The notes below the pieces were generated by a model that searched no databases, was not told where the DNA came from, and saw nothing but the letters and a program-made list of their open reading frames with translations. Below, in pieces: positions 1-33,585 of a stretch of DNA of 33,585 bases (position 1 is the first letter of the stretch; each line of letters starts with the position of its first letter). Source of the DNA: a virus; IMG/VR virus record IMGVR_UViG_3300025840_000126, positions 1-33,585 of that record. One strand, written 5' to 3'. The translations under genes and the position numbers were made by a program.

Positions 1-15
1 CTTTTAAAAAAAATA
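1..15. repeat. 15-bp terminal direct repeat, left copy
   Basis: CTTTTAAAAAAAATA at 1-15 is identical to 33571-33585. Because one methyltransferase gene is split between the two window ends, the repeat is best read as the overlap of a circular or circularly permuted assembly. It is too short to be a typical phage direct terminal repeat. Confidence 0.8.
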
Positions 16-1186: not shown

Positions 1187-1205
1187 AATAAATTAAATTA
1201 TTTTG

Positions 1206-1235
1206 TTGTTTATTAAAAAAATTAGTTTATCTTTG
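1206..1235 (+). promoter_or_regulatory. Bacteroidetes-type promoter, leadered class
   Basis: TTG at 1206-1208, a 19-bp spacer, and TATCTTTG at 1228-1235 match the TTG / TAnnTTTG signature. A 24-nt A-rich leader follows before ATG 1260. The last 17 bases through the start, AAACTAAAACATTATGA, recur exactly before the gene at 31585. Confidence 0.75.
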
Positions 1236-1259
1236 TAAGGAATTTAAAACTAAAACATT

Positions 1260-1469
1260 ATGAAAGACAACGTAAATATAAAAGATTCTTACTACATAGA
1301 GCAAGACAATTACACGCTAGAGGTGTTCTACCACTACTATTCAGAGAGAGATACCAACTACGAAGAATTAGAAATAGAAAAGGTTATACTCAATGGAGGT
1401 ATTGATATAACAGATTTGTATTGGGATTACATTGATTTAGAAGATGTTATTATAGAATCATTAAAATAA
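1260..1469 (+). CDS. Small acidic phage protein, unknown function
   Basis: 69 residues, strongly acidic and Tyr-rich (YHYYSERDTNYEELEIEKV, then LNGGIDITDLYWDYIDLEDVI). No domain recognised. It is the first gene behind the promoter at 1206-1235 and is followed directly by TAAATG coupling into the next gene. The acidic composition and early-type promoter fit a host-takeover or DNA-mimic-like role, but nothing in the sequence proves that. Confidence 0.6.
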   Translation: MKDNVNIKDSYYIEQDNYTLEVFYHYYSERDTNYEELEIEKVILNGGIDITDLYWDYIDLEDVIIESLK

Positions 1470-1832
1470 ATGGGGGATATAGGGGGTATAGGGGGGTACT
1501 TCGATACTCCAATGATAAACAAACTAAACGATAACGAATTTAATTACATTATTATGATTACTAAAAAAGAAGCAAAGCATTTACTAAACAAGATGAGAAA
1601 CGATAACAGAATGTTCTCACTTGAATTTATTAAAAAAGATGGAACTAAAAGAGTTATGTTGGCTAGGTTCAATGTAACAAAGGGTCTTACAGGAAAGGGT
1701 CAACGATACAATCCTGCTGACTACGATTTAATCAATGTGTACGATATGAATAAGAGTGCATACAGAAGTGTGCCACTAAATACATTACTTTGGATTAGAA
1801 CCAAAGGTAAAAGATATTATGTTAGTGCATAG
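1470..1832 (+). CDS. SH3-barrel WYL_2 (DUF2693) protein
   Basis: The C-terminal 90 residues, from MITKKEAKHLLNKM through FSLEFIKKDGTKRVMLARF to VPLNTLLWIRTKGKRYYV, match the small Sm/SH3-like WYL_2 (DUF2693) family found in phages and mobile elements; function unknown, possibly nucleic-acid or ligand sensing. The 28 residues before that Met are encoded by a G-rich tract and are not family-like, so ATG 1554 may be the true start; ATG 1470 abuts the previous stop and gives 120 residues. The gene ends just before a terminator at 1861. Confidence 0.75.
   Translation: MGDIGGIGGYFDTPMINKLNDNEFNYIIMITKKEAKHLLNKMRNDNRMFSLEFIKKDGTKRVMLARFNVTKGLTGKGQRYNPADYDLINVYDMNKSAYRSVPLNTLLWIRTKGKRYYVSA
1471..1510 (+). 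other. G-tract repeats plus hairpin in the leader of the WYL_2 gene
   Basis: Three runs of five to six G at 1472-1476, 1482-1486 and 1491-1496 are separated by ATATA and TATA. The last run also forms a hairpin GGGGTA / TACTCC (1493-1498 with 1505-1510, loop CTTCGA). In such an AT-rich genome this is a strong local anomaly. It could form a two-layer quadruplex or a translational control hairpin before ATG 1554. Confidence 0.45.
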
Positions 1833-1860
1833 TACTTGTTTTTTTGAATTTTGTTTTGGA

Positions 1861-1897
1861 ATGGGAGGTAGTATTGAAACTGCTTCCCATTTTTTTT
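1861..1897 (+). terminator. Intrinsic terminator
   Basis: An 11-bp stem ATGGGAGGTAG / CTGCTTCCCAT (1861-1871 with 1880-1890, two G-U pairs), an 8-nt loop and an eight-T run at 1890-1897. It closes the 1260-1832 operon. Confidence 0.8.
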
Positions 1898-1956
1898 ACC
1901 TGTTGAAACTGCCATTGACCTCAGCGAAACTGCTCTGAAACTGCCCTGAAACTGCC
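1876..1956 (+). repeat. Five copies of GAAACTGC
   Basis: GAAACTGC begins at 1876, 1905, 1926, 1937 and 1948; the last three are spaced exactly 11 bp (GAAACTGCTCT, GAAACTGCCCT, GAAACTGCCAT). The first copy lies in the loop and right arm of the terminator. The same octamer occurs eleven more times on the + strand elsewhere. Iteron-like binding sites are one reading. Confidence 0.7.
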
Positions 1957-1998
1957 ATTAGTCTGCCGAATTTTTTATAATGACCACCTCCTCTCCTC

Positions 1999-2088
1999 TT
2001 AGTGTCGTTTGTACACTTACTTAGTGTATTTTCTACACTAACCTCTTGGTGTACTTTTTACACTAACTTTGTGTCGTTTGTACACTAA
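1999..2088. repeat. Array of four 21-bp dyads, TTaGTGT-N7-ACACTAA
   Basis: Units lie at 1999-2019, 2021-2041, 2046-2066 and 2068-2088, starting 22, 25 and 22 bp apart, so they present similar faces of the helix. Arms are TTAGTGT/ACACTTA, TTAGTGT/ACACTAA, TTGGTGT/ACACTAA and TTTGTGT/ACACTAA; units 1 and 4 share the same centre CGTTTGT. They lie 50-100 bp upstream of tandem promoters. Operators for a dimeric regulator, or origin binding sites, are the likely roles. Confidence 0.75.
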
Positions 2089-2136
2089 GGTAACAAATTA
2101 ATATTTTTGTTCTTTTTATTTGTTTATTAAATATTT

Positions 2137-2190
2137 TTGTTGTATGGGTTGAAAGTTTTTTATTTTTGTATTAAAAAATTTGTATATTTG
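2137..2190 (+). promoter_or_regulatory. Two overlapping Bacteroidetes-type promoters
   Basis: The first -7 box, TATTTTTG at 2161-2168, has TTG candidates at 2137-2139 (21-bp spacer) and 2140-2142 (18-bp spacer). A second box, TATATTTG at 2183-2190, gives a 23-nt leader to ATG 2214 but has a poor upstream partner. Both lie just downstream of the four-dyad array, which could control them. Confidence 0.6.
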
Positions 2191-2213
2191 CTGAAACAAA
2201 ACTCAATAAAACG

Positions 2214-2315
2214 ATGAAACAAAAAAAACATTTTACACTTGATAATTTAGTTTTTCACTTATGGAAAGTTATTATTGTTACAGTACTATTAATTAACATT
2301 TTAAATTTATACTAA
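2214..2315 (+). CDS. 33-residue putative membrane peptide
   Basis: The ORF begins MKQKKHFTLDNLVFHLWKV and continues IIVTVLLINILNLY: a basic N-terminus followed by one hydrophobic segment of about 15-17 residues. It starts at the position expected for the promoter box at 2183-2190 and stops one base before the GP88 gene. It could be a leader peptide for that gene or a small membrane protein. No family recognised. Confidence 0.4.
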   Translation: MKQKKHFTLDNLVFHLWKVIIVTVLLINILNLY

Positions 2316-2316
2316 T

Positions 2317-2952
2317 ATGAAAACTAGAATAAAACTATATAACGGGCTAAAAATTAGTCAAATTTTAACACAAAATAGTAAACTAAAAAAGACTAGCAAA
2401 GAAAATAATAAAAGAGTTTTTAACTTTGGTATATCGGCTTATAAAACTAGTACGGGAAAAATTGTTTGTCCCTTTGCTAAAGACTGTATAAAGTTTTGTT
2501 ATGCTCAGAAAGGGGCTTATAATTTTGGCAATGTTAAGCCATTATTTGAGCAAAGATATAATTTGACTAAAAGTAATATTTTTATTGAAGCAATAAACGA
2601 CAGTATAAAAGCTAAAAAAGTAGATGTTTTACGTATTCACGATAGTGGAGATTTTTACAGTAATGAATACATAAACAAATGGTTAACAATAGCAAAACAA
2701 AATAAAGATGTTATTTTTTATGCATACACTAAAAGTATACCATTATTTGAAAAAATAAATTTACCTGAAAATTTTATTGTTATTTATTCATACGGATCAA
2801 AAGTAGATAATTTAATTGATCCGAATAAACATAGACATTCAAAAATATTTGACGATGAAAAACAATTGATAAACGAAGGATATATAAACGCTAGTAAAAA
2901 TGATTTAAACGCTATTAAAAGCAATAAAAAAGTCGGCTTAATATTCCACTAA
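2317..2952 (+). CDS. GP88-family phage protein
   Basis: 211 residues with the pattern I associate with the Gene product 88 (GP88) family: CPFAKDCIKFCYAQKGAY with Cys51, Cys57 and Cys61, then RIHDSGDFYS at about 106-115 and FYAYTKS at 134-140. The clustered cysteines could bind metal or an iron-sulphur cluster, and the His/Asp motif could be catalytic; the family has no firm function. The gene is distinctly A/T-richer than the structural genes and has its own promoters and dyad array, suggesting an independently acquired unit. It follows the small ORF at 2214 by one base. Confidence 0.75.
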   Translation: MKTRIKLYNGLKISQILTQNSKLKKTSKENNKRVFNFGISAYKTSTGKIVCPFAKDCIKFCYAQKGAYNFGNVKPLFEQRYNLTKSNIFIEAINDSIKAKKVDVLRIHDSGDFYSNEYINKWLTIAKQNKDVIFYAYTKSIPLFEKINLPENFIVIYSYGSKVDNLIDPNKHRHSKIFDDEKQLINEGYINASKNDLNAIKSNKKVGLIFH

Positions 2953-2978
2953 AAAAAACAATTAAAAACTATAAACAA

Positions 2979-3134
2979 ATGATACTATATAAATTCACAT
3001 TAAATTACAGTAATGGACAAATAAAAATATATAACAAGTTTTGTGTACACTACAAAAAAACTAGTATTTATAAACAATGTATAAAACTTTTAGAAAATGA
3101 TACTTTAACAAGTTTTTCAGTAAGTAATAATTAA
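2979..3134 (+). CDS. Small ORF, 51 residues, unknown
   Basis: It opens MILYKFTLNYSNGQIKIYNK and ends in FSVSNN, filling the space between the GP88 gene and the ORF at 3147. It is basic, Tyr- and Asn-rich and has no recognised motif. Support comes from the A-rich upstream stretch (AACTATAAACAA) like other starts here and from spacing of 26 and 12 bases to its neighbours; coding status is otherwise unproven. Confidence 0.4.
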   Translation: MILYKFTLNYSNGQIKIYNKFCVHYKKTSIYKQCIKLLENDTLTSFSVSNN

Positions 3135-3146
3135 AATAATAAAACT

Positions 3147-3335
3147 ATGAACGATATAAACAATATAAATAGATATAAAATAAATACTAAAATTTCTTTT
3201 GGTTCTAGGTTCTACTTTGCATCTTGGTGTTATGCTAAGAGCTTTAGAGGGGCAAGACAAACGAAGGTATTTAAACACTATAAGAACGAGTTAGAAAATT
3301 CTAGGATAGTCGGTTTACAAATAGAAAAATTTTAA
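3147..3335 (+). CDS. Small basic protein, 62 residues, unknown
   Basis: A basic protein with an aromatic centre (FGSRFYFASWCYAKSFRGARQT) followed by a Lys/Arg-rich helix. The aromatic plus K/R pattern suggests nucleic-acid or membrane contact but no family is recognised. It is preceded by AATAATAAAACT, a leader like those of other genes in the window, and followed four bases later by a 29-residue membrane peptide. Confidence 0.5.
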   Translation: MNDINNINRYKINTKISFGSRFYFASWCYAKSFRGARQTKVFKHYKNELENSRIVGLQIEKF

Positions 3336-3339
3336 GGAT

Positions 3340-3429
3340 ATGAGTAATAAAAAACGACTAGAAGACACGAATTTATCTACTTTTTGGCTAATTATTGTAT
3401 TTATTTGCGCTTTATTCGGTGGGTGTTAG
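3340..3429 (+). CDS. 29-residue putative membrane peptide
   Basis: MSNKKRLEDTNLSTF precedes a single hydrophobic helix WLIIVFICALFGGC that ends the protein. The basic N-terminus predicts the C-terminus outside or in the membrane. Its start sits four bases after the preceding stop, within TAAGGATATG. It resembles other tiny phage membrane peptides of unknown role. Confidence 0.4.
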   Translation: MSNKKRLEDTNLSTFWLIIVFICALFGGC

Positions 3430-3494
3430 CCGATTAAATTACTAGATTAAGAAAGTACAACTATTAAATTATTTGTACTTTTTTTTATTTTTTG

Positions 3495-3525
3495 TTGTGT
3501 ATATAAAAAATATGTTTTATATTTG
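3495..3525 (+). promoter_or_regulatory. Bacteroidetes-type promoter, leadered class
   Basis: TTG at 3495-3497, a 20-bp spacer and TATATTTG at 3518-3525. The 27-nt leader ends CAACTAAAACA before ATG 3553, similar to the leaders at 1236-1259 and 31557-31584. Confidence 0.75.
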
Positions 3526-3552
3526 TATCATATTAATTAAACAACTAAAACA

Positions 3553-3795
3553 ATGACAAAATTAGTTTACATATTAAGAAGCAACCATGACGGTATCTTA
3601 GGAGTGTTTACAAATAAAAAGTTAGCATATAATGATGCTCTTGATTATCTTAAAGACACAAGTAGCACAATAGAAAAAAGCTATTCACAAATTTGCGCCG
3701 AGTTTAAAAATACTTATAGAAAGGATATTGAAGTAGTTTACAATAATAGTTTAATATTAGAAATTGAACAAATCCCACTAAACAATAAGTATTAA
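3553..3795 (+). CDS. Small protein, 80 residues, unknown
   Basis: It begins MTKLVYILRSNHDGILGVFT and contains a helical NKKLAYNDALDYL segment, the layout of small phage proteins that report a short beta-hairpin then a helix; no functional family is recognised. It is transcribed alone: promoter at 3495-3525 and terminator at 3818-3845, making it a self-contained moron-like unit. Confidence 0.6.
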   Translation: MTKLVYILRSNHDGILGVFTNKKLAYNDALDYLKDTSSTIEKSYSQICAEFKNTYRKDIEVVYNNSLILEIEQIPLNNKY

Positions 3796-3817
3796 ACACC
3801 AACAAATAACACTAATT

Positions 3818-3845
3818 AAAGACTCTTCATTGAGTCTTTTTTTTT
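3818..3845 (+). terminator. Intrinsic terminator
   Basis: A perfect 8-bp stem AAAGACTC / GAGTCTTT (3818-3825 with 3832-3839), loop TTCATT, followed by an unbroken T run to 3845. Confidence 0.88.
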
Positions 3846-4303
3846 GCTTAAAATTACAGTAATTTTTTTTTATTAATGTTAGCAAAATCTTTGCAAAGAT
3901 AAGCATTTTTTTTTAATAACCTAATCCCACATTCAATAAGTTATAAACATTTGTTAAAATACTTTGTTAATAACTTGTGCAAATTAGTATTAAATTATTT
4001 GTATATGTAATAAATTTGTTGTATCTTTATAATACCGTCAAATTTTGGCGCCGCCCTACTTCTGCATTAGTACATAACCACAACAAAATGAAGTTCAATT
4101 TTATAAGTAGATAATATTTAGGAGTTATTATTGAAGTACGTTTATTCAGCGTTGCAAGAAACCTTCGCAAGTTAGTAAAAATAAAAGATAATCTTTCGCA
4201 AAAGTAGTGCGAAATGGTAAAAAATATATAGAAAAGTGTTTTTAGAGGGCAAAAAAATTATAAAAAAATTTTAAAGTCCTATTTTATAGATTAAAGGGTT
4301 AAT
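3846..4303. other. Long non-coding region upstream of the terminase (candidate packaging site or structured RNA)
   Basis: No ORF of credible length is present. The stretch holds a possible promoter (TTTG 3998-4001, 20-bp spacer, TATCTTTA 4022-4029), a lone GC-rich island TTGGCGCCGCCC near 4046-4057, and a perfect 7-bp hairpin TTTCGCA / TGCGAAA (4194-4200 with 4208-4214). The position immediately before the terminase small subunit is where phage cos/pac sites often lie; that role is inference. Confidence 0.45.
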
Positions 4304-4370
4304 GAAGGGTACGTGAAGGGTATAACATACCCTACATAATAAAGCTAAAGATAAAGCTAAGGTTAAAGCT
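4304..4370 (+). repeat. Composite AGGGT repeat, copy 1
   Basis: GAAGGGTACGTGAAGGGT at 4304-4321, inverted repeat AGGGTA-TAACA-TACCCT at 4317-4333, then an A-rich run of AAAGCTA/AAAGATA units to 4370. Closely similar composites occur at 27191-27275 and inside the initiator gene at 32114-32206. It ends directly at the terminase promoter. Confidence 0.75.
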
Positions 4371-4371
4371 A

Positions 4372-4403
4372 TTTGTATATTACTATTATTTTGTTTAGCT
4401 TTG
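4372..4403 (+). promoter_or_regulatory. Terminase promoter, leaderless class
   Basis: TTTG 4372-4375, a 20-bp spacer, TAGCTTTG 4396-4403. ATG 4408 begins only four bases after the -7 box, so transcription should start at or beside the start codon. Confidence 0.75.
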
Positions 4404-4407
4404 TATT

Positions 4408-4818
4408 ATGAGTGACGAAAAAGAAAAGTTACCTGACACGGAAAACTATGCGCCAAAAAGAACCTTTGGTCATCACAATGGCACGGGTAGAAAGAAGGGT
4501 AGTATAACCAAAACCACAAAGATAACAAGGGAGATACTTGCCAATGCTCTTAGTGGGCAGGAGGTAAATATTATGGATGCCCTTGAAAAGCTGTCGGCTA
4601 AGAACCCTGAAGCATATATCAATGCCATAGCTAAATTGCTAAACTACGCAATGCCAAAGCTACAATCAACAGAGATTAAAGCAGAGAACAGCAGAAAGAT
4701 TGAGATTAAGCTAGATGACAATGTTAGCTTAGATGAACTAAAAGCTAAGATGGAGAATCTCGAAAGAGATGACGATGACGATGATGACTTGGCAGACTAT
4801 ATCGAGATAGATGGATAA
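4408..4818 (+). CDS. terS: Terminase small subunit
   Basis: 136 residues. A basic N-terminal segment with FGHHNGTGRKKGSITKTTK, typical of phage small terminase/DUF5681-type proteins, is followed by helices (ITREILANALSGQEVNIMDAL, PEAYINAIAKLLNYAMPKL) that would mediate DNA binding and oligomerisation, and by a very acidic tail with a seven-Asp run (about 123-129). It overlaps the large subunit by eight bases. It would recognise viral DNA and recruit the large subunit; the preceding repeat and non-coding region are candidate binding sites. The leaderless promoter leaves no 5' UTR. Family assignment rests on motif, size and position. Confidence 0.8.
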   Translation: MSDEKEKLPDTENYAPKRTFGHHNGTGRKKGSITKTTKITREILANALSGQEVNIMDALEKLSAKNPEAYINAIAKLLNYAMPKLQSTEIKAENSRKIEIKLDDNVSLDELKAKMENLERDDDDDDDLADYIEIDG

Positions 4819-6238
4819 ACAACAGAAAAAGCAGTTGCTTCAGGCAATGGAGAAAGCCATATGCGAGAAATCGTTTTATGAGTTCTTCATCAGAGCCTTT
4901 GAGATTGCTGAACCCTCTGTTCCCATATCAGTAAACTTTCACCATAAATATCTTTGCGATTTACTACAAGCCGAAGCCGAAAGGATAAAAGAGAATCGAC
5001 CAAAGGATAAGGATATAATTATTAATATTCCATTCCGTAGTAGTAAGTCACTACTCGTTACGGTATTGTTTCCCGCTTGGTGTTGGGCAGTATATCCTAA
5101 GATGAGGTTCATCACAGCATCATACTCAGCAGAGATTAGTATAGAACACGCAACCAAGTCAAGGGATATAATCAATAGCGAATGGTATCAGAAACATTGG
5201 GGTGAAACCTATCAGATTAAGAAAGACCAAAACCTAAAGGCAAGATACGAGAATACTTTTCTAGGAGTTAGAAGGGCAACATCTGTTGGAGGTTCGGTAA
5301 CAGGGCAAGGTGGCGATATAATTCTAGTCGATGACCCTACCTCTCCGAAAAATGCAGCTTCGCAGATAGAAAGAGAAAATGCTAACGAATGGTATAAGTC
5401 AACATTGTATTCACGACTTAACAATCCAACAACGGGAGTTAGGATAATTATTATGCAAAGAGTACACGAAGATGACCTAAGTGGCTATCTTCTATTCAAC
5501 TCACCCGACAAACATAAGCATATATGTATTCCCGCAGAACTTTCTAGCGACTTAAAGCCTTCACACCTAGCTGACCAATATCAAGATGGTCTGTTTTGGA
5601 AAGAAAGGTTTTCACAAGAGGTTTTAGATGATTACAAGTCGGCACTTGGCTCTTATGGCTATGCAGGACAACTACAACAGCGACCAACACCTGCAAATAG
5701 CGGGATGATTAAGAAATCGTGGTTCAAGGTAGAAGAAAAACAAAAAGAAGGGGTAGTCAATTTTATAATCGACCCTGCATACACCGCAAGTGAGAAAAAT
5801 GACCCTTCAGCACTACTAGCCTATGTATTTGCTGACAATACTTGGCAAATAACATCAGTACAGAATGTAAGGTTGGAATTTCCCGACCTAGTAAAGCATA
5901 TAGTCAAGTTCGTAGAGAAGAATGGCTATACTACGCAGTCTAAAATATTTGTAGAGCCTAAAGCAAGTGGTAAATCCATTGTGCAGACACTTATGAGAGA
6001 AACAGGACTGAACGTAAGAGAAGATAAACCGCCTACCAAAGATAAGGTGGCTAGAGTGCAGGACATAAGTCCAACATTGGAAACAGGTAGAGTTACTCTA
6101 CTAAAGGGTGCTTGGAACGAGGAGTTCCTAATGCAATGCCAACAATTTCCTGCTGCAAGGCACGATGATATGGTGGATTGCCTAGTAATGACCGTAAATC
6201 AGCACTTTAAAGGTAAAAAAGTAGTATTTTTTGGATAA
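4811..6238 (+). CDS. terL: Terminase large subunit
   Basis: 475 residues with the two-domain terminase layout. ATPase: Walker A variant IPFRSSKS at 73-80, Walker B ILVDDP at 171-176. RNase H-like nuclease: FIIDPAY with Asp321, VEPKASGKS with Glu382, and AARHDDMVD with the acidic pair near 452-456. The C-terminal half follows the phage terminase C-terminal family (TIGR01630-like). It cuts concatemers and pumps DNA into the prohead through the portal, which here lies nearly 15 kb downstream. Normal length, no missing catalytic residue seen. Confidence 0.95.
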   Translation: MDKQQKKQLLQAMEKAICEKSFYEFFIRAFEIAEPSVPISVNFHHKYLCDLLQAEAERIKENRPKDKDIIINIPFRSSKSLLVTVLFPAWCWAVYPKMRFITASYSAEISIEHATKSRDIINSEWYQKHWGETYQIKKDQNLKARYENTFLGVRRATSVGGSVTGQGGDIILVDDPTSPKNAASQIERENANEWYKSTLYSRLNNPTTGVRIIIMQRVHEDDLSGYLLFNSPDKHKHICIPAELSSDLKPSHLADQYQDGLFWKERFSQEVLDDYKSALGSYGYAGQLQQRPTPANSGMIKKSWFKVEEKQKEGVVNFIIDPAYTASEKNDPSALLAYVFADNTWQITSVQNVRLEFPDLVKHIVKFVEKNGYTTQSKIFVEPKASGKSIVQTLMRETGLNVREDKPPTKDKVARVQDISPTLETGRVTLLKGAWNEEFLMQCQQFPAARHDDMVDCLVMTVNQHFKGKKVVFFG

Positions 6239-6296
6239 ATACCTTATAAAATTGAAATTTGCACAAAAACTGCGACAGATAACAGATACTAATAAT

Positions 6297-6304
6297 TAAT
6301 TTTG
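6297..6304 (+). promoter_or_regulatory. -7 element, leaderless class
   Basis: TAATTTTG at 6297-6304 with ATG 6310 five bases on. No convincing upstream TTG is seen. The decamer TTTGCACAAA occurs at 6259 and again at 6301, so the downstream half of the box region is duplicated 42 bp apart in this 71-bp gap. Confidence 0.5.
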
Positions 6305-6309
6305 CACAA

Positions 6310-6702
6310 ATGAATACATTTAAGCATATAAACAGCAAACACAACACTTTGGTAAGCAAATACCTTACTTACATACAAAAGCAGGTATATAACGCTACCG
6401 AAACTGCTAATGATGGTAAATACGATGATTTTCAGGACTTACTTGAAGATATTGTAATGTATCACAATGATTTTGCTGATACAGGCTTAAACAAGGATAA
6501 TTTAGAGGAATGGGCATTTGCTATCCCTAATTTAACAATGTTTACAGCATTAGGCTTCTTTGCAGGATTAAGAAATGAAGAAAACGATGATGTTATTGAG
6601 GATTGCGTGAGAAACGTATATAGTTCTACAATGGATGTCGTAGGAAATTTATCTGACCTAATGAAAGACGAAGAAGAAATAAAAGAAATGGAACAATGTT
6701 AA
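6310..6702 (+). CDS. Hypothetical tail-module protein
   Basis: 130 residues, mostly helical and acidic (EETA/DDFQDLLEDIV, RNEENDDVIEDCV, KDEEEIKEMEQC). No family recognised. It overlaps the tail chaperone gene by seven bases, starts from its own promoter box and begins the long late operon, so a role in tail assembly is likely. Its length and acidity would fit an assembly chaperone or adaptor. Confidence 0.7.
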   Translation: MNTFKHINSKHNTLVSKYLTYIQKQVYNATETANDGKYDDFQDLLEDIVMYHNDFADTGLNKDNLEEWAFAIPNLTMFTALGFFAGLRNEENDDVIEDCVRNVYSSTMDVVGNLSDLMKDEEEIKEMEQC

Positions 6703-7340
6703 ATATAGAAATAAATAGCAAAGAGTACAATATTCCTAACAAGTGGGAAGAAATGACTGTTGATTACTATTGCGGAGTGTATGAGATAATAAAAAAGTAT
6801 CAAATCACAGAAGAAGAAGCAAATAGTGACAATGATTTGACAAAATACCACATAATGCAGGAAAATAAGATGTATAAGGAATTATTCATCTATATGACAG
6901 GCATTAGTGACAAAGTAATGGCAAATGTGCCAATGGAAGATGTTATGGCAGTAATTGAGTGCCTTAACGAGATTATGGAAGAATACAAGCCAAAAGGAAT
7001 GGACTATTTTGAATTTGAGGGCGATATATACTATTTCCCTATGGATTTCCTTAGAACAGGCACTTTTGGTGATTACATAGAGAGTCAGCAGCTTGAAATG
7101 AATACACAATACCTAAAAAACGGTAGATTTGATATTTTACCCGAACAAATGGCAATATTGTGTAAACAAGTTGATGAGGAGGTTGACCTCGACAATATTG
7201 ATGAAAAGGCGAAAGCATTTCGTAGATTGACAATGGACATCGTATGGGAGTTCAGTTTTTTTTTGAACAAACGAACTTTGGCATCAATCAACGTTATAAA
7301 AACCTTTTCAGAGATGGCGGAACAAAAAGTATCGCAGTAG
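6696..7340 (+). CDS. Tail assembly chaperone (G-type)
   Basis: 214 residues; N-terminal KEYNIPNKWEEMTVDYY layout followed by acidic helices, as in tail assembly chaperones of Bacteroidetes phages. Near the end, the codons AGT TTT TTT TTG run through nine T at 7256-7264, and a -1 slip there moves ribosomes into the ORF that ends at 7552. This matches the lambda G/GT strategy: an abundant short product and a rare fusion that loads on the tape measure. Unusually, four or five genes lie between this pair and the tape measure gene. Confidence 0.75.
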   Translation: MLNIEINSKEYNIPNKWEEMTVDYYCGVYEIIKKYQITEEEANSDNDLTKYHIMQENKMYKELFIYMTGISDKVMANVPMEDVMAVIECLNEIMEEYKPKGMDYFEFEGDIYYFPMDFLRTGTFGDYIESQQLEMNTQYLKNGRFDILPEQMAILCKQVDEEVDLDNIDEKAKAFRRLTMDIVWEFSFFLNKRTLASINVIKTFSEMAEQKVSQ

Positions 7341-7552
7341 CGAAGGCAAGTAAGATAATGAAGCCATTTGGTTGGCTGAACACCTTATACGACCTAGCAC
7401 TTGATGGAGTATTTACAAGAGATGGTAAAGATGCTATGCAAAGTGTAAAAGATGAAAAGTTGTATAAAGTTTTAACATACCTGTCTTGGAAAACTGCAAA
7501 AGGAGATTATGAACTAGCTGTTAATGAAGAACAGAGGAAACAAATAAAATAA
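7244..7552 (+). CDS. Tail assembly chaperone T-part, probably made by -1 frameshift
   Basis: The frame open from 7244 encodes, after the T9 run, EQTNFGINQRYKNLF and PFGWLNTLYDLALDGVF to the stop at 7552. It is exactly in the -1 frame of the upstream gene and overlaps it by 97 bases, the typical GT layout. The fusion would have about 285 residues (189 from the first frame, 96 from the second). An ATG at 7244 is the formal ORF start, but it lies only 12 bases before the slippery run and codes a short shadow, so independent initiation is less likely. Confidence 0.75.
   Translation: MGVQFFFEQTNFGINQRYKNLFRDGGTKSIAVAKASKIMKPFGWLNTLYDLALDGVFTRDGKDAMQSVKDEKLYKVLTYLSWKTAKGDYELAVNEEQRKQIK
7256..7264 (+). 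promoter_or_regulatory. T9 slippery site for -1 frameshift
   Basis: Nine consecutive T in the codons agT TTT TTT TTg. T_TTT_TTT is a classic slippery heptamer, and both reading frames stay open across it. No strong downstream stem-loop is apparent. Confidence 0.7.
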
Positions 7553-8727
7553 TGGGTTTTACTAAACTTAGAGAATTAAGAGATAGGTTTGAGCAACAAT
7601 GGATAAATGGTGGCTTCATCTTTGGTTACGAGAATGAAATCAATGAGAATCACAACAATGACTATCCATTACTTGTTGTTTTACCACCAACATCTGAACT
7701 TCCTGCTACGGAAGGCGATGTGCAAGAGGAATACACTTTCGAGTGCCTAGTCGTTAAGCCATACTATCAAAACCAAGCAGGTTCGCTTGATGTGGTGTTT
7801 AGCTTATTGGAACAAGAAGCATTGACTTGGCTACAAAGGGTGTTGGATAGCTACGCAAACAAAGAGGTAATTTTAAGTCCTGACAGTATATCTGTTGAAC
7901 GAGAAAAAGAACTATATAACGACAAGTTGATACAGGTCAGGCTTACTTTTACTTTAAATGCGTTCTCTCACGACTTTACAAGGCTTGATGAAGCATTTGT
8001 TAAGGGATTGACACCTTTGCTTTGGTTAAAGGCTGATATGGGTGTTAAAACGGAGTTCTTTGGCGGTAATGAGGTTGTAAACAAATGGATTGACCAAAGT
8101 GGTAATGCAAATCACTTTGAACAAACAACATCAGCTAAGAAGCCTCTGTATAAGTACGAGATGTCATCCAACAGCTATCCTTATGTATTCTTTGATGGAA
8201 CAAATGACTTCTTGGATTGTGTTAACGACTCCCTTGATGGAACTGCTGATGGTTTGAATAATGGACTATCTGTATTCTATGTAGCTAAGGGATATGATGG
8301 TTATAGTGGATATATGTTAGGTAAAAATTTAGACAACGCAGCAAAAGCAAACTTCGCTGTTAGAATATCAACACAGGGCGGTAATCTTAATTGGAGAACT
8401 CAAGTGCAAGATAGCGATGACGATTTGTTGGACTACATATATACATCAAACTCAGCAAATCAGGTTTCCGCTAATGCATTTACAAAACACAACACCAATC
8501 ACAGCGTAAAGTCTTTTGAGAATGGCTCTTTGGTTGATGTTGAAACAAATCCCGACTTTGATGCAGAAGCATTACAAGACCTATACCCACTAAGACTAGG
8601 TGCAGCTAGAGATACTATTGGACACCTAAAAGTTGACATACAAGAGATTCTTATATTTGAAAAAGAACTTACTGTCGAAGAAGTTACAAAATTATCAGAT
8701 TACTTAAAACATAAATACAACATATAA
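7552..8727 (+). CDS. Tail protein fused to a LamG-like lectin domain
   Basis: 391 residues. The first ~150 (LRELRDRFEQQWINGGFIF, then a beta-rich region ending RLTFTLNAFSHDF) have the size and layout of a small tail-terminator or connector protein. From about 157 (PLLWLKADMG, WIDQSGNANHF, PYVFFDGTNDFLDC, LIFEKELTVEEV) the protein has the concanavalin/LamG fold signature seen in glycan-binding domains. The stop abuts the next start (TAATG). A virion-exposed lectin domain on a tail core protein would aid adsorption. The split between domains is by eye. Confidence 0.75.
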   Translation: MGFTKLRELRDRFEQQWINGGFIFGYENEINENHNNDYPLLVVLPPTSELPATEGDVQEEYTFECLVVKPYYQNQAGSLDVVFSLLEQEALTWLQRVLDSYANKEVILSPDSISVEREKELYNDKLIQVRLTFTLNAFSHDFTRLDEAFVKGLTPLLWLKADMGVKTEFFGGNEVVNKWIDQSGNANHFEQTTSAKKPLYKYEMSSNSYPYVFFDGTNDFLDCVNDSLDGTADGLNNGLSVFYVAKGYDGYSGYMLGKNLDNAAKANFAVRISTQGGNLNWRTQVQDSDDDLLDYIYTSNSANQVSANAFTKHNTNHSVKSFENGSLVDVETNPDFDAEALQDLYPLRLGAARDTIGHLKVDIQEILIFEKELTVEEVTKLSDYLKHKYNI

Positions 8728-29756: not shown

Positions 29757-29987
29757 ATGACAAAGATAGCAAATAACGAGTTTGAGAAATTCGTAAGAAT
29801 CACAGGAATGACTAAGCGTAGATTTAGTGAAGTAACAGGATTAAAAGGTACTAGCGTAACTAAATACCTAGAGAACCCTACAATGCTAAGGCTCAAGCAC
29901 TTACAACTATTGGCTGATGCCGATGAGTTTAAAGAACAAGAGGTTGGCGATGTTGAACTTTTAAATATGATAAACTATGTTAAATAG
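29757..29987 (+). CDS. Small HTH protein
   Basis: 76 residues, with FVRITGMTKRRFSEVTGLKG then TSVTKYLENPTMLRLKHLQLLA, matching an HTH of the lambda-repressor (XRE) type in which the second helix is RRFSEVTG and the recognition helix TSVTKYLENP. It would bind DNA, probably as a dimer, and could regulate early genes; candidate ligand of the dyad array at 1999-2088. It overlaps the next gene by 11 bases. Confidence 0.65.
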   Translation: MTKIANNEFEKFVRITGMTKRRFSEVTGLKGTSVTKYLENPTMLRLKHLQLLADADEFKEQEVGDVELLNMINYVK

Positions 29988-30390
29988 TATTGAGAGGAGG
30001 GAAGCATTAAATAAAGCAGTATGCTCTATTTATGGTGTGAATGAGAATGAACTATTTAGCGTAAGCAGAAAGCGAGAAATCATAAGTGCAAGGCGAATGG
30101 TGTTGTATTTTCTTCGCAAACACTATGGCGAAACCTATATGAGCATAGCTAAAACATTTAGTATGAATCACGCCACAGTAATACATCACATAACACAAAT
30201 GAAAAACTTTTTGGAGTTTGATAAGATGGAAGTTATAAACTATATCAAAGTTAGAGATTATGTGTTTGAGCAAAATAGTGAAGTAACACTATCAGAGGAA
30301 CTTGACCTCTTAAAAAAAGAGAAGTCTTTATTAGACGATAGATTAGAACAAATAGAAAATGAATTAAAATTATTAGACAATGGAAATTAA
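29977..30390 (+). CDS. DnaA domain IV-like protein
   Basis: 137 residues. Region 33-73 (EIISARRMVLYFLRKHYGET, MSIAKTFSMNHATVIHHITQM) fits the DNA-binding domain IV of DnaA, whose signature is an AR-x5-Y-x-LR helix, then an Ig-like HTH ending HTTVxHAI; here NHATVIHHI. The ATPase domain is absent. The C-terminal part is a coiled coil (LDLLKKEKSLLDDRLEQIENEL). It could recognise DnaA boxes of the phage or host and steer replication; Bacteroidetes phages often carry such domain-only proteins. Confidence 0.75.
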   Translation: MLNSIERREALNKAVCSIYGVNENELFSVSRKREIISARRMVLYFLRKHYGETYMSIAKTFSMNHATVIHHITQMKNFLEFDKMEVINYIKVRDYVFEQNSEVTLSEELDLLKKEKSLLDDRLEQIENELKLLDNGN

Positions 30391-33061: not shown

Positions 33062-33585
33062 AGATATTAAATTTATACGCTTGTCTAGGTGGTAACCGAT
33101 ACAAGTGGGGAGATGAACACGAGATAACAGCAGTAGAATGGGATGAGGAATTAGCTAGGTTATATCAAGAGAGGTTTCCTAATGATACAGTAATAGTAGG
33201 AGATGCACATCAATATCTGCTAGACCACTATCAAGAGTTTGATTTCATTTGGAGTAGTCCACCTTGCCCAACACATTCAACAACAAATTGGTTTTTAAAC
33301 GCACAAGGTGTTATACGCTATCCTAATATGGAACTATATCAAGAAATAATACTTTTAGATTCTTTTTTTAAAGGCAAGTATGTTATTGAAAATGTTATAC
33401 CATATTATGAACCATTAATACCTGCTAAAAAAAGAGGTAGGCATTTATATTGGACTAACTTTCCTTTACCCAATGTTTTAAGCCATAGGCAACCACCAAA
33501 AATGAATTGTAATAAAAACATAACTAAAAAAGTTGCTTTAGCTTTTGCTGAATATCATTTTATAGACAAGCTTTTAAAAAAAATA
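33058..33585 (+). CDS. C5 cytosine DNA methyltransferase, N-terminal part
   Basis: The first 176 codons of a small Dcm-type enzyme: SAM-binding motif NLYACLGGNRYKWG (5-18), acidic motif II (AVEWD), PPCPTHS (68-74) with the catalytic Cys70, and VIENVIPYY (109-117) containing ENV. The target-recognition domain is very short, as in a class of Bacteroidetes phage methyltransferases. The window ends inside it; the remainder is at 1-142. It would methylate phage DNA at a fixed sequence, probably to escape host restriction. Confidence 0.9.
   Translation, partial: MKILNLYACLGGNRYKWGDEHEITAVEWDEELARLYQERFPNDTVIVGDAHQYLLDHYQEFDFIWSSPPCPTHSTTNWFLNAQGVIRYPNMELYQEIILLDSFFKGKYVIENVIPYYEPLIPAKKRGRHLYWTNFPLPNVLSHRQPPKMNCNKNITKKVALAFAEYHFIDKLLKKI
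33571..33585. repeat. 15-bp terminal direct repeat, right copy
   Basis: CTTTTAAAAAAAATA, identical to 1-15; the preceding bases complete the methyltransferase codons GAC AAG CTT TTA. Confidence 0.8.

What the first reader, a model, noticed from the sequence alone, without database searches (positions are those of the whole stretch)
1999..2088. Array of four regularly spaced 21-bp dyads before an isolated GP88 unit
Four near-identical inverted repeats (TTaGTGT-N7-ACACTAA) with 22/25/22-bp spacing lie between a terminator and tandem promoters. Regular spacing near two helical turns suggests cooperative binding of a dimer. The phage encodes several orphan HTH proteins (989, 17695, 29757, 30933) that could be the ligand. 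Such an array may be a control switch or an origin.
Basis: partly seen in the sequence, partly recalled or inferred. Interest (0 to 1): 0.7.

Follow-up and report, generated by a model that had tools for sequence, protein, structure and literature searches.

The report
Phage promoter wired to host metabolic repressor
A bacterial virus carries four copies of what looks like the landing site of a bacterial metabolism-sensing repressor (the NrtR family), set over a likely promoter of swappable extra genes, so that the state of the infected cell could decide when those genes are used.

Summary
The array is real: four 21-bp dyads (TTAGTGT-N7-ACACTAA) at 1999-2088; 40 shuffles gave none as good. It is tied neither to GP88 nor clearly to a phage HTH protein. 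The same dyad pair in bacterial genomes lies within 1.5 kb of an nrtR-type gene (NUDIX plus NrtR_WHD) at 22 of 50 places, where the flanking TTA/TAA, not in the pattern, reappears. NrtR loci found by protein carry 18 GTGT-N7-ACAC cores, 0.9 expected. BtAraR, an NrtR-family protein, binds tandem sites with this core (PMC4666351). Hence NrtR-type operators. None of 31 viral records searched, many of them fragments, shows an NrtR domain, so the ligand is probably the host's. Dyad 4 overlaps a predicted promoter, suggesting repression; this overlap was seen in 7 of 36 records. In 4 of 16 related contigs a Fur-like box replaces the dyads; in Bacteroidia it precedes feoAB and heme oxygenase genes at 2 of 13 places read. 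Arrays occur in 28 viral contigs; control patterns gave 0 and 2. No binding was tested; host and effector are unknown.

The parts
1860..1897 (+). Terminator-like hairpin AATGGGAGGTAG...CTGCTTCCCATT plus T run, end of the upstream operon
   Evidence: sequence; its part GAAACTGCTTCCCATTTTTT found in 17 viral contigs
1876..1955 (+). Five GAAACTGC direct repeats (1876, 1905, 1926, 1937, 1948), function unknown, present in dyad-bearing and Fur-type relatives
1999..2019 (.). NrtR-type dyad 1 TTAGTGT-CGTTTGT-ACACTTA
2021..2041 (.). NrtR-type dyad 2 TTAGTGT-ATTTTCT-ACACTAA (no counterpart in L002, L003, L005, L006)
2046..2066 (.). NrtR-type dyad 3 TTGGTGT-ACTTTTT-ACACTAA (no counterpart in L002, L003, L005, L006)
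2068..2088 (.). NrtR-type dyad 4 TTTGTGT-CGTTTGT-ACACTAA, overlaps the TTTG element of predicted promoter P1
2077..2109 (+). Predicted promoter P1: TTTG 2077-2080, N21, TATTTTTG 2102-2109
   Evidence: -7 box TAnnTTTG from PMC9723704 (passages); the TTTG -33 element is recalled
2106..2190 (+). Further predicted promoters P2 (2106/2132), P3 (2136/2161) and TATATTTG at 2183
2214..2315 (+). 33-aa ORF MKQKKHFTLDNLVFHLWKVIIVTVLLINILNLY with hydrophobic tail; the like in 8 of 13 operator loci read, this one included
2317..2952 (+). GP88 (PF17338), the exchangeable accessory gene in this phage

Best explanation
The array is a run of four operators of the NrtR family of repressors (NUDIX domain plus winged helix), matched to a bacterial host. 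Host NrtR-family dimers bind the dyads; the one on dyad 4 covers the TTTG (-33) element of promoter P1 and blocks RNA polymerase, and the others strengthen occupancy. A ligand that rises during infection (ADP-ribose for NAD-type NrtR, a sugar or glycolytic signal for other branches), or dilution of the repressor by replicating phage DNA, lifts the block and turns on the accessory operon (33-aa peptide, then GP88 or another cassette). Shown by sequence: the dyads, their identity with sites at nrtR genes, overlap with a predicted promoter, a Fur-like box in their place in relatives, no NrtR domain found in the phage. Inferred: binding, repression, effector, timing, host.
For: (1) The dyad-pair pattern gave 50 loci in bacterial and archaeal genomes; an NrtR-type protein lies within 1.5 kb in 22 of 50 and somewhere in the fetched DNA in 26 of 50, the L111 hit being much weaker (the HMM was built from 21 of these proteins; NrtR_WHD was confirmed by Pfam at the three genome loci tested, L076, L083, L099). 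(2) At flank positions not fixed by the pattern these loci give TTA (38, 37, 33 of 50) and TAA (30, 34, 29 of 50), the phage consensus. (3) 38 NrtR loci found by protein hold 18 GTGT-N7-ACAC cores in 15 loci against 0.9 expected from order-1 resampling; 15 cores remain after dropping one counted twice and two that are the array by which that genome was chosen. (4) BtAraR: 21-bp motif, tandem sites 3 bp apart, oligos with GTGT-N7-ACAC, GTGT read in the crystal (PMC4666351, passages and section 11). (5) Spacer and half-site controls: N7 28 viral contigs, N8 0, TGTG/CACA 2. (6) Overlap of the last dyad with a TTG-N18-23-TAnnTTTG promoter in the window, L003, L005, L006, L007, L037 and L044, 7 of 36 records. 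(7) Fur-like box in the same place in L028 (the contig of L008), L029, L033, L036; 8 such boxes within 150 bp of dyads, in 6 of 46 array loci, against 0.05 expected. (8) No NrtR_WHD in 31 and no FUR in 23 viral records.
Against: No binding or expression data. Host unknown; NrtR_WHD was found in only 23 of 60 genomes of the class sampled, and the strict tandem array in 0 of 295, so such hosts do not commonly use such arrays. 24 of 50 genome loci showed no NrtR in the fetched DNA. The promoter overlap was not seen in 29 of 36 records, among them the close relatives L002, L027, L031, L032 and L035. The Fur reading of the alternative box rests on its recalled 7-1-7 shape and on 2 of 13 host places. 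Streptococcus phage 9873 has GTGT-N7-ACAC repeats inside its replication initiator gene, so other proteins may read this dyad. Small HTH ORF 30933 goes with the dyads in close relatives. Absence of NrtR from fragments says little.
Confidence: 0.65

Rival explanations
1. Repressor sponge: the arrays titrate the host regulator, so that replicating phage DNA derepresses the host's own NAD or sugar genes; control of the phage promoter is secondary. Not exclusive of the best explanation.
For: Seven dyads in a row in L062, more than the one to three cores per NrtR locus seen; two extra dyads in the window compared with L002, L003, L005, L006; no promoter overlap seen in 29 of 36 records.
Against: In the window and six other records the last dyad overlaps a predicted promoter, and the alternative Fur-like element is a single or double box, a poor sponge.
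Confidence: 0.15
2. Operators of a phage-encoded small HTH protein, best candidate ORF 30933 (resolvase-type HTH, 61 aa).
For: ORF 30933 is found in the window, G001, G003, G007, G008, G009 (all with at least one dyad) at 81-100% identity, and weakly (37%) in G017; it is missing at its place in the Fur-type records G006 and G028.
Against: 7 of 31 records match; not found in the 34-kb array-bearing records G010 and G014, and missing at its place in L034, which has one dyad. It does not explain the same dyad at bacterial nrtR genes.
Confidence: 0.12
3. Replication origin with iterons bound by the phage initiator (candidate ORF 31766) or by the DnaA domain IV protein (ORF 29977).
For: GTGT-N7-ACAC repeats lie inside the replication initiator gene of Streptococcus phage 9873; the window encodes a DnaA domain IV protein.
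Against: L008 and L033 lack the dyads but keep ORF 31766 at 85% and 83% identity, like dyad-bearing L002 and L005 at 84%; ORF 29977 is 97% identical in L033. The array lies outside ORF 31766, at a predicted promoter.
Confidence: 0.08
4. RNA element: hairpins in a leader transcript.
For: The transcript would fold strongly (-32.7 kcal/mol, z -6.1).
Against: Any set of dyads folds. T-T mismatches in the arms of dyads 1 and 4 are kept in L002, L003, L005, L006, and the array lies upstream of the predicted starts and downstream of a terminator-like hairpin.
Confidence: 0.04

Closest known systems
NrtR-family operators, e.g. BtAraR sites of Bacteroides thetaiotaomicron (PMC4666351, passages and section 11)
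   Same: 21-bp semipalindrome, GTGT-N7-ACAC core, tandem sites
   Different: Here in a phage, two to seven sites, no nrtR or NAD gene found next to them; outer bases TTA/TAA as at the nrtR genes, not those of the AraR oligos
Phage GIL01 promoter P1 with host LexA boxes (PMC4551915, abstract start and passages)
   Same: Host repressor sites in a phage promoter let the state of the cell gate phage genes
   Different: LexA and SOS rather than NrtR; temperate phage; controls lysogeny rather than an accessory cassette
Fur-regulated phage gene (the stx1 promoter; recalled, not looked up)
   Same: An iron repressor of the host controls an accessory gene on a phage
   Different: Here a Fur-like box replaces an NrtR-type array at the same place in related phages
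Repeats in the replication initiator gene of Streptococcus phage 9873 (NC_047763)
   Same: GTGT-N7-ACAC dyads in tandem in a phage
   Different: Inside a replication gene; flanks differ; no promoter link

Membership tests
NrtR-family operator | 21-bp dyad with GTGT-N7-ACAC core and TTA/TAA outer bases | tested here: met
NrtR-family operator | Tandem sites 22-26 bp apart | tested here: met
   window 22/25/22; bacterial pairs 22-26 with mode 23, the pattern allowing only 22-26
NrtR-family operator | Overlaps or abuts the promoter of a regulated gene | tested here: inconclusive
   dyad 4 overlaps TTTG of a predicted P1; the promoter is a prediction, and the overlap was seen in 7 of 36 records
NrtR-family operator | Neighbour of nrtR or of a known regulon gene | tested here: not met
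   no NrtR_WHD in the window or in 30 other viral records; no NAPRTase family in 23 viral records, window included
NrtR-family operator | Bound by an NrtR-family protein and released by its ligand | not testable with these tools
   needs gel shift with ADP-ribose or sugars
Phage replication origin (initiator iterons) | Kept in relatives with the same initiator | tested here: not met
   dyads absent in L008 and L033 while ORF 31766, the candidate initiator, is kept
Operator of a phage immunity repressor | Repressor gene near the operator, changing with it | tested here: not met
   the nearest HTH ORF, 989, is 88-100% identical in 17 close relatives across operator types
Tyrosine-recombinase core site (7-7-7 layout, recalled) | Phage integrase encoded | tested here: not met
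   no PF00589 in the window; other recombinase families not searched
Fur box (alternative element in relatives) | 7-1-7 palindrome upstream of iron genes in hosts | tested here: inconclusive
   ATTTAGAATNATTCTAAAT at 14 places in 12 of 99 genomes, reversed control 0; of 13 places read, 2 lie about 25 bp before FeoAB and heme oxygenase genes, 4 beside cytochrome c genes (2 of these by eye), 7 by other genes

The most novel reading that the evidence does not exclude
Phages, many of them probably of Bacteroidota, share a gate at accessory-gene promoters: interchangeable operator modules for host metabolic repressors (NrtR-type arrays, Fur-type boxes, sometimes both). The phage thereby reads NAD/ADP-ribose or sugar and iron state, for instance ADP-ribose released by NAD-destroying defences, before spending counter-defence genes.
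Probability: 0.3. Interest if true: 0.85.

Novelty: new variant of a known kind. Interest (0 to 1): 0.62.

Why it matters
If host NrtR and Fur proteins control phage accessory genes, infection outcome would depend on the metabolic state of the cell through operators readable from sequence. It gives a direct test of whether phages sense NAD loss, an effect of several anti-phage defences, and a marker for finding phage genes used only under such conditions.

Tried and rejected
Link to GP88: rejected, cassettes and operator types are mixed among relatives. Phage HTH ligand, origin, RNA hairpin: see rivals. Recombination core site: no phage integrase (PF00589) in the window. Phage-encoded NrtR or Fur, or a gene of the NAPRTase family: none found in 31, 23 and 23 viral records, many of them fragments. 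Third palindrome TTTACAGCTGTAAA of L026, L030, L034: searched as ATTTACAGCTGTAAA, 0 of 99 genomes, regulator unknown. GP88 structure: AlphaFold model of mean pLDDT 74.7, no Foldseek match at E <= 0.001, function not resolved; the pattern C-x5-C-x3-C hints at a metal cluster only. blastn of two arrays against phage records gave only weak hits. Cultured relatives: window 1200-8000 has no DNA match; the terminase is 44% identical in Croceibacter phage P2559Y and in a sewage phage, ORF 28923 40-43% in Flavobacterium and Tenacibaculum phages; Tenacibaculum phage JQ has neither the dyad core nor the Fur-like box. One search used a pattern with one base too many between the dyads; several of its 27 contigs have other outer bases (e.g. 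TAGGTGT in L040) and it misses the window's own spacing, so one search is the count used. In checking this report I lowered the best explanation from 0.7 to 0.65, because the promoter overlap proved to be in 7 of 36 records, and the novel case from 0.35 to 0.3, because only 2 of 13 host places of the Fur-like box are iron or heme genes.

Full report
Observation. The window holds four dyads at 1999-2088 with spacing 22/25/22. With at most two mismatches to the palindrome TTAGTGT-N7-ACACTAA the window has exactly these four; 40 shuffles gave none with one mismatch or fewer and a mean of 0.6 with two or fewer. With three mismatches to a looser pattern there is no excess, 41 against 36.6. A terminator-like hairpin lies upstream, five GAAACTGC repeats overlap and follow it, and TAnnTTTG boxes follow the array at 2102, 2132, 2161 and 2183. 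The first 15 and last 15 bases of the window are the same, so the record may be a complete circular genome (sequence ends).

Relatives. Exact pattern scans gave five viral contigs with a dyad pair and 17 contigs with the upstream terminator sequence. In 16 of these 17 the operator region can be read; L025 ends before it. Of the 16, 7 have two to four exact GTGT-N7-ACAC dyads (L002, L003, L004, L005, L006, L031, L035), 2 have one exact and one degenerate dyad (L027, L032), 3 have one dyad plus the palindrome TTTACAGCTGTAAA (L026, L030, L034), and 4 have no dyad but a box TTTAGAATNATTCTAAA or a close variant (L028, L029, L033, L036) (L004 was read only). L004 is nearly the window itself, and L033/L036, L026/L030 and L027/L032 look like near-duplicates, so these are not 16 independent cases. 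L002, L003, L005 and L006 have only the counterparts of dyads 1 and 4. The downstream cassette is GP88 in the window, L008 and L026, a DUF7178-like gene in L002, L003, L027, L034, L035 and L036, and others elsewhere; Pfam confirmed GP88 for the window and L026 and DUF7178 for L002, BLAST showed GP88 in L008 (91%), the rest is by eye. Operator type and cassette are mixed.

What the dyad is. A scan of the genome collection (84,980 species) with the pair pattern gave 50 loci. Many lie just upstream of genes for NUDIX-NrtR regulators: within 1.5 kb in 22 of 50, anywhere in the fetched DNA in 26 of 50, one of them (L111) a much weaker hit; 24 of 50 show none. L078 lies beside a NAMPT gene with NrtR 1.7 kb away, L083 beside NrtR and a NadM-like gene. 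Bases next to the core that the pattern did not fix are TTA and TAA in most loci. In the class of a Chitinophagales genome (Bacteroidia in GTDB, by recall), NrtR_WHD is found in 23 of 60 genomes, and a strict tandem array in 0 of 295. The 38 NrtR loci, 28 from that class sample and 10 from the four genomes behind loci L077, L092/L112, L118 and L119 (the phylum of L118 is not named), held 18 GTGT-N7-ACAC cores against 0.9 expected from order-1 resampling. Of the 18, one is counted twice (L137/L161), two are the array by which its genome was chosen (L133), and two look coding (L144 at 2082, L157). Neighbouring genes, by eye except as stated, include phosphofructokinase, glyceraldehyde-phosphate dehydrogenase, glucose-6-phosphate dehydrogenase and isocitrate dehydrogenase genes, and in L144 a PRPP-synthase-like and a NADAR gene confirmed by Pfam. 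L144 has TTTGTGTCATAATTACACTAAG, close to dyad 4 of the phage. The effector cannot be told from the site: NAD-type and sugar-type branches use like sites.

Published basis. PMC4666351 (passages and section 11 read): BtAraR, an NrtR-family regulator, has a 21-bp motif, tandem sites 3 bp apart, gel-shift oligos with GTGT-N7-ACAC and a crystal in which contacts define GTGT. PMC6800001 (passages): M. smegmatis NrtR binds an N7-spaced palindrome of another sequence, and a section title says that ADP-ribose disrupts its interplay with DNA. PMC9723704 (passages): TAnnTTTG is the flavobacterial -7 box; the upstream TTTG/TTG element is recalled. PMC4551915 (abstract start and passages): phage GIL01 with host LexA. 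A library search for NrtR with phage listed 16 papers, none with a title or abstract start about NrtR sites in phages; passages of PMC9503650 discuss NrtR as a sensor in bacterial conflict systems. The original NrtR regulon paper is not held, so I cannot say what it lists, and I cannot exclude unheld papers.

Arrays elsewhere. The N7 pair pattern hits 28 viral contigs, the same pattern with N8 none, and a scrambled half-site two. L062 has seven dyads in a row, two of them degenerate. Eight Fur-like boxes (at most 2 mismatches) lie within 150 bp of dyads, in 6 of 46 array loci, against 0.05 boxes expected from the rest of the same loci, where the rate rests on one hit in 382 kb; L042/L047 and L052/L057/L059/L061 look related, so this is two to three independent cases. 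No viral record tested shows NrtR_WHD (0 of 31: 28 of these carry at least one dyad, 3 are Fur-type relatives, many are fragments) or FUR (0 of 23). Elsewhere a few large or unannotated phage records do encode NrtR-like proteins. The hosts of the array contigs are not told by the records; Bacteroidota is my inference from relatives and promoter style.

The Fur-like box. ATTTAGAATNATTCTAAAT occurs at 14 places in 12 of 99 genomes of the class, the reversed control nowhere. Of 13 places read, two lie about 25 bp before FeoAB and heme oxygenase genes (Pfam), four beside cytochrome c genes (L168 and L172 by Pfam, L170 and L173 by eye), seven by other genes. So the name Fur is likely but not secured.

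Mechanism. In the window and in L003, L005, L006, L007, L037 and L044, the last dyad's spacer carries the TTG of a TTG-N21-22-TAnnTTTG promoter; in the other 29 of the 36 records examined it does not, among them L002, L027, L031, L032 and L035. A dimer there would cover the -33 element. BtAraR covers 25 bp (PMC4666351), so dimers 22 bp apart would touch on nearly the same face of the helix; cooperativity is inferred. P1 is thus not universal, and the sponge reading stays open.

Against phage ligands. ORF 989 is 88-100% identical in 17 close relatives of every operator type; ORF 29757 is 95-100% (68% in L031) and 29977 is 88-98% (86% in L031), with one Fur-type relative covering them; ORF 30933 is present in six records with dyads, weakly in G017, absent at its place in two Fur-type ones, but also absent at its place in L034, which has one dyad, and not found in two 34-kb array records.

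Verdict. The best reading is an array of NrtR-type host-repressor operators on a phage accessory-gene promoter, confidence 0.65. The wider reading of exchangeable host-sensor modules across such phages is the most novel one not excluded, probability 0.3.

Noticed in passing
window 1876-1955: Five GAAACTGC direct repeats between terminator and dyads, present in relatives of every operator type; similar repeats by eye near arrays in L038 and L053.
   Followed up: partly
window 29977-30390: Protein with a DnaA domain IV (PF08299, E 1.3e-15) and no DnaA ATPase domain reported by Pfam.
   Followed up: partly
L099 5609-5647 and L123 4210-4248: NrtR-type dyad pairs in bacteria near TIR-domain genes (TIR plus WD40 in L099), which may tie NrtR control to defence.
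   Followed up: partly
L093, L108, L113, L080, L115, L124: Dyad pairs beside PP2C phosphatase or kinase-like genes resembling TerY-P type triads (by eye and recall; PP2C confirmed for L093 only).
   Followed up: partly
L112, L168, L170, L172, L173: Similar cytochrome c genes lie beside a dyad pair (L112) or a Fur-like box (the others), so the two operator kinds may share host targets too.
   Followed up: partly
L178 201-261: Streptococcus phage 9873 replication initiator gene contains tandem GTGT-N7-ACAC repeats.
   Followed up: partly
L026, L030, L034: Third operator type: one dyad plus TTTACAGCTGTAAA; the regulator is unknown.
   Followed up: partly
window 2317-2952: The 16 aligned GP88 proteins share invariant C-x5-C-x3-C and HDSGD; L026 carries a distant GP88 member at the same place.
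   Followed up: partly
window 1-15 and 33571-33585: Identical 15-bp ends, suggesting a circular assembly.
   Followed up: no
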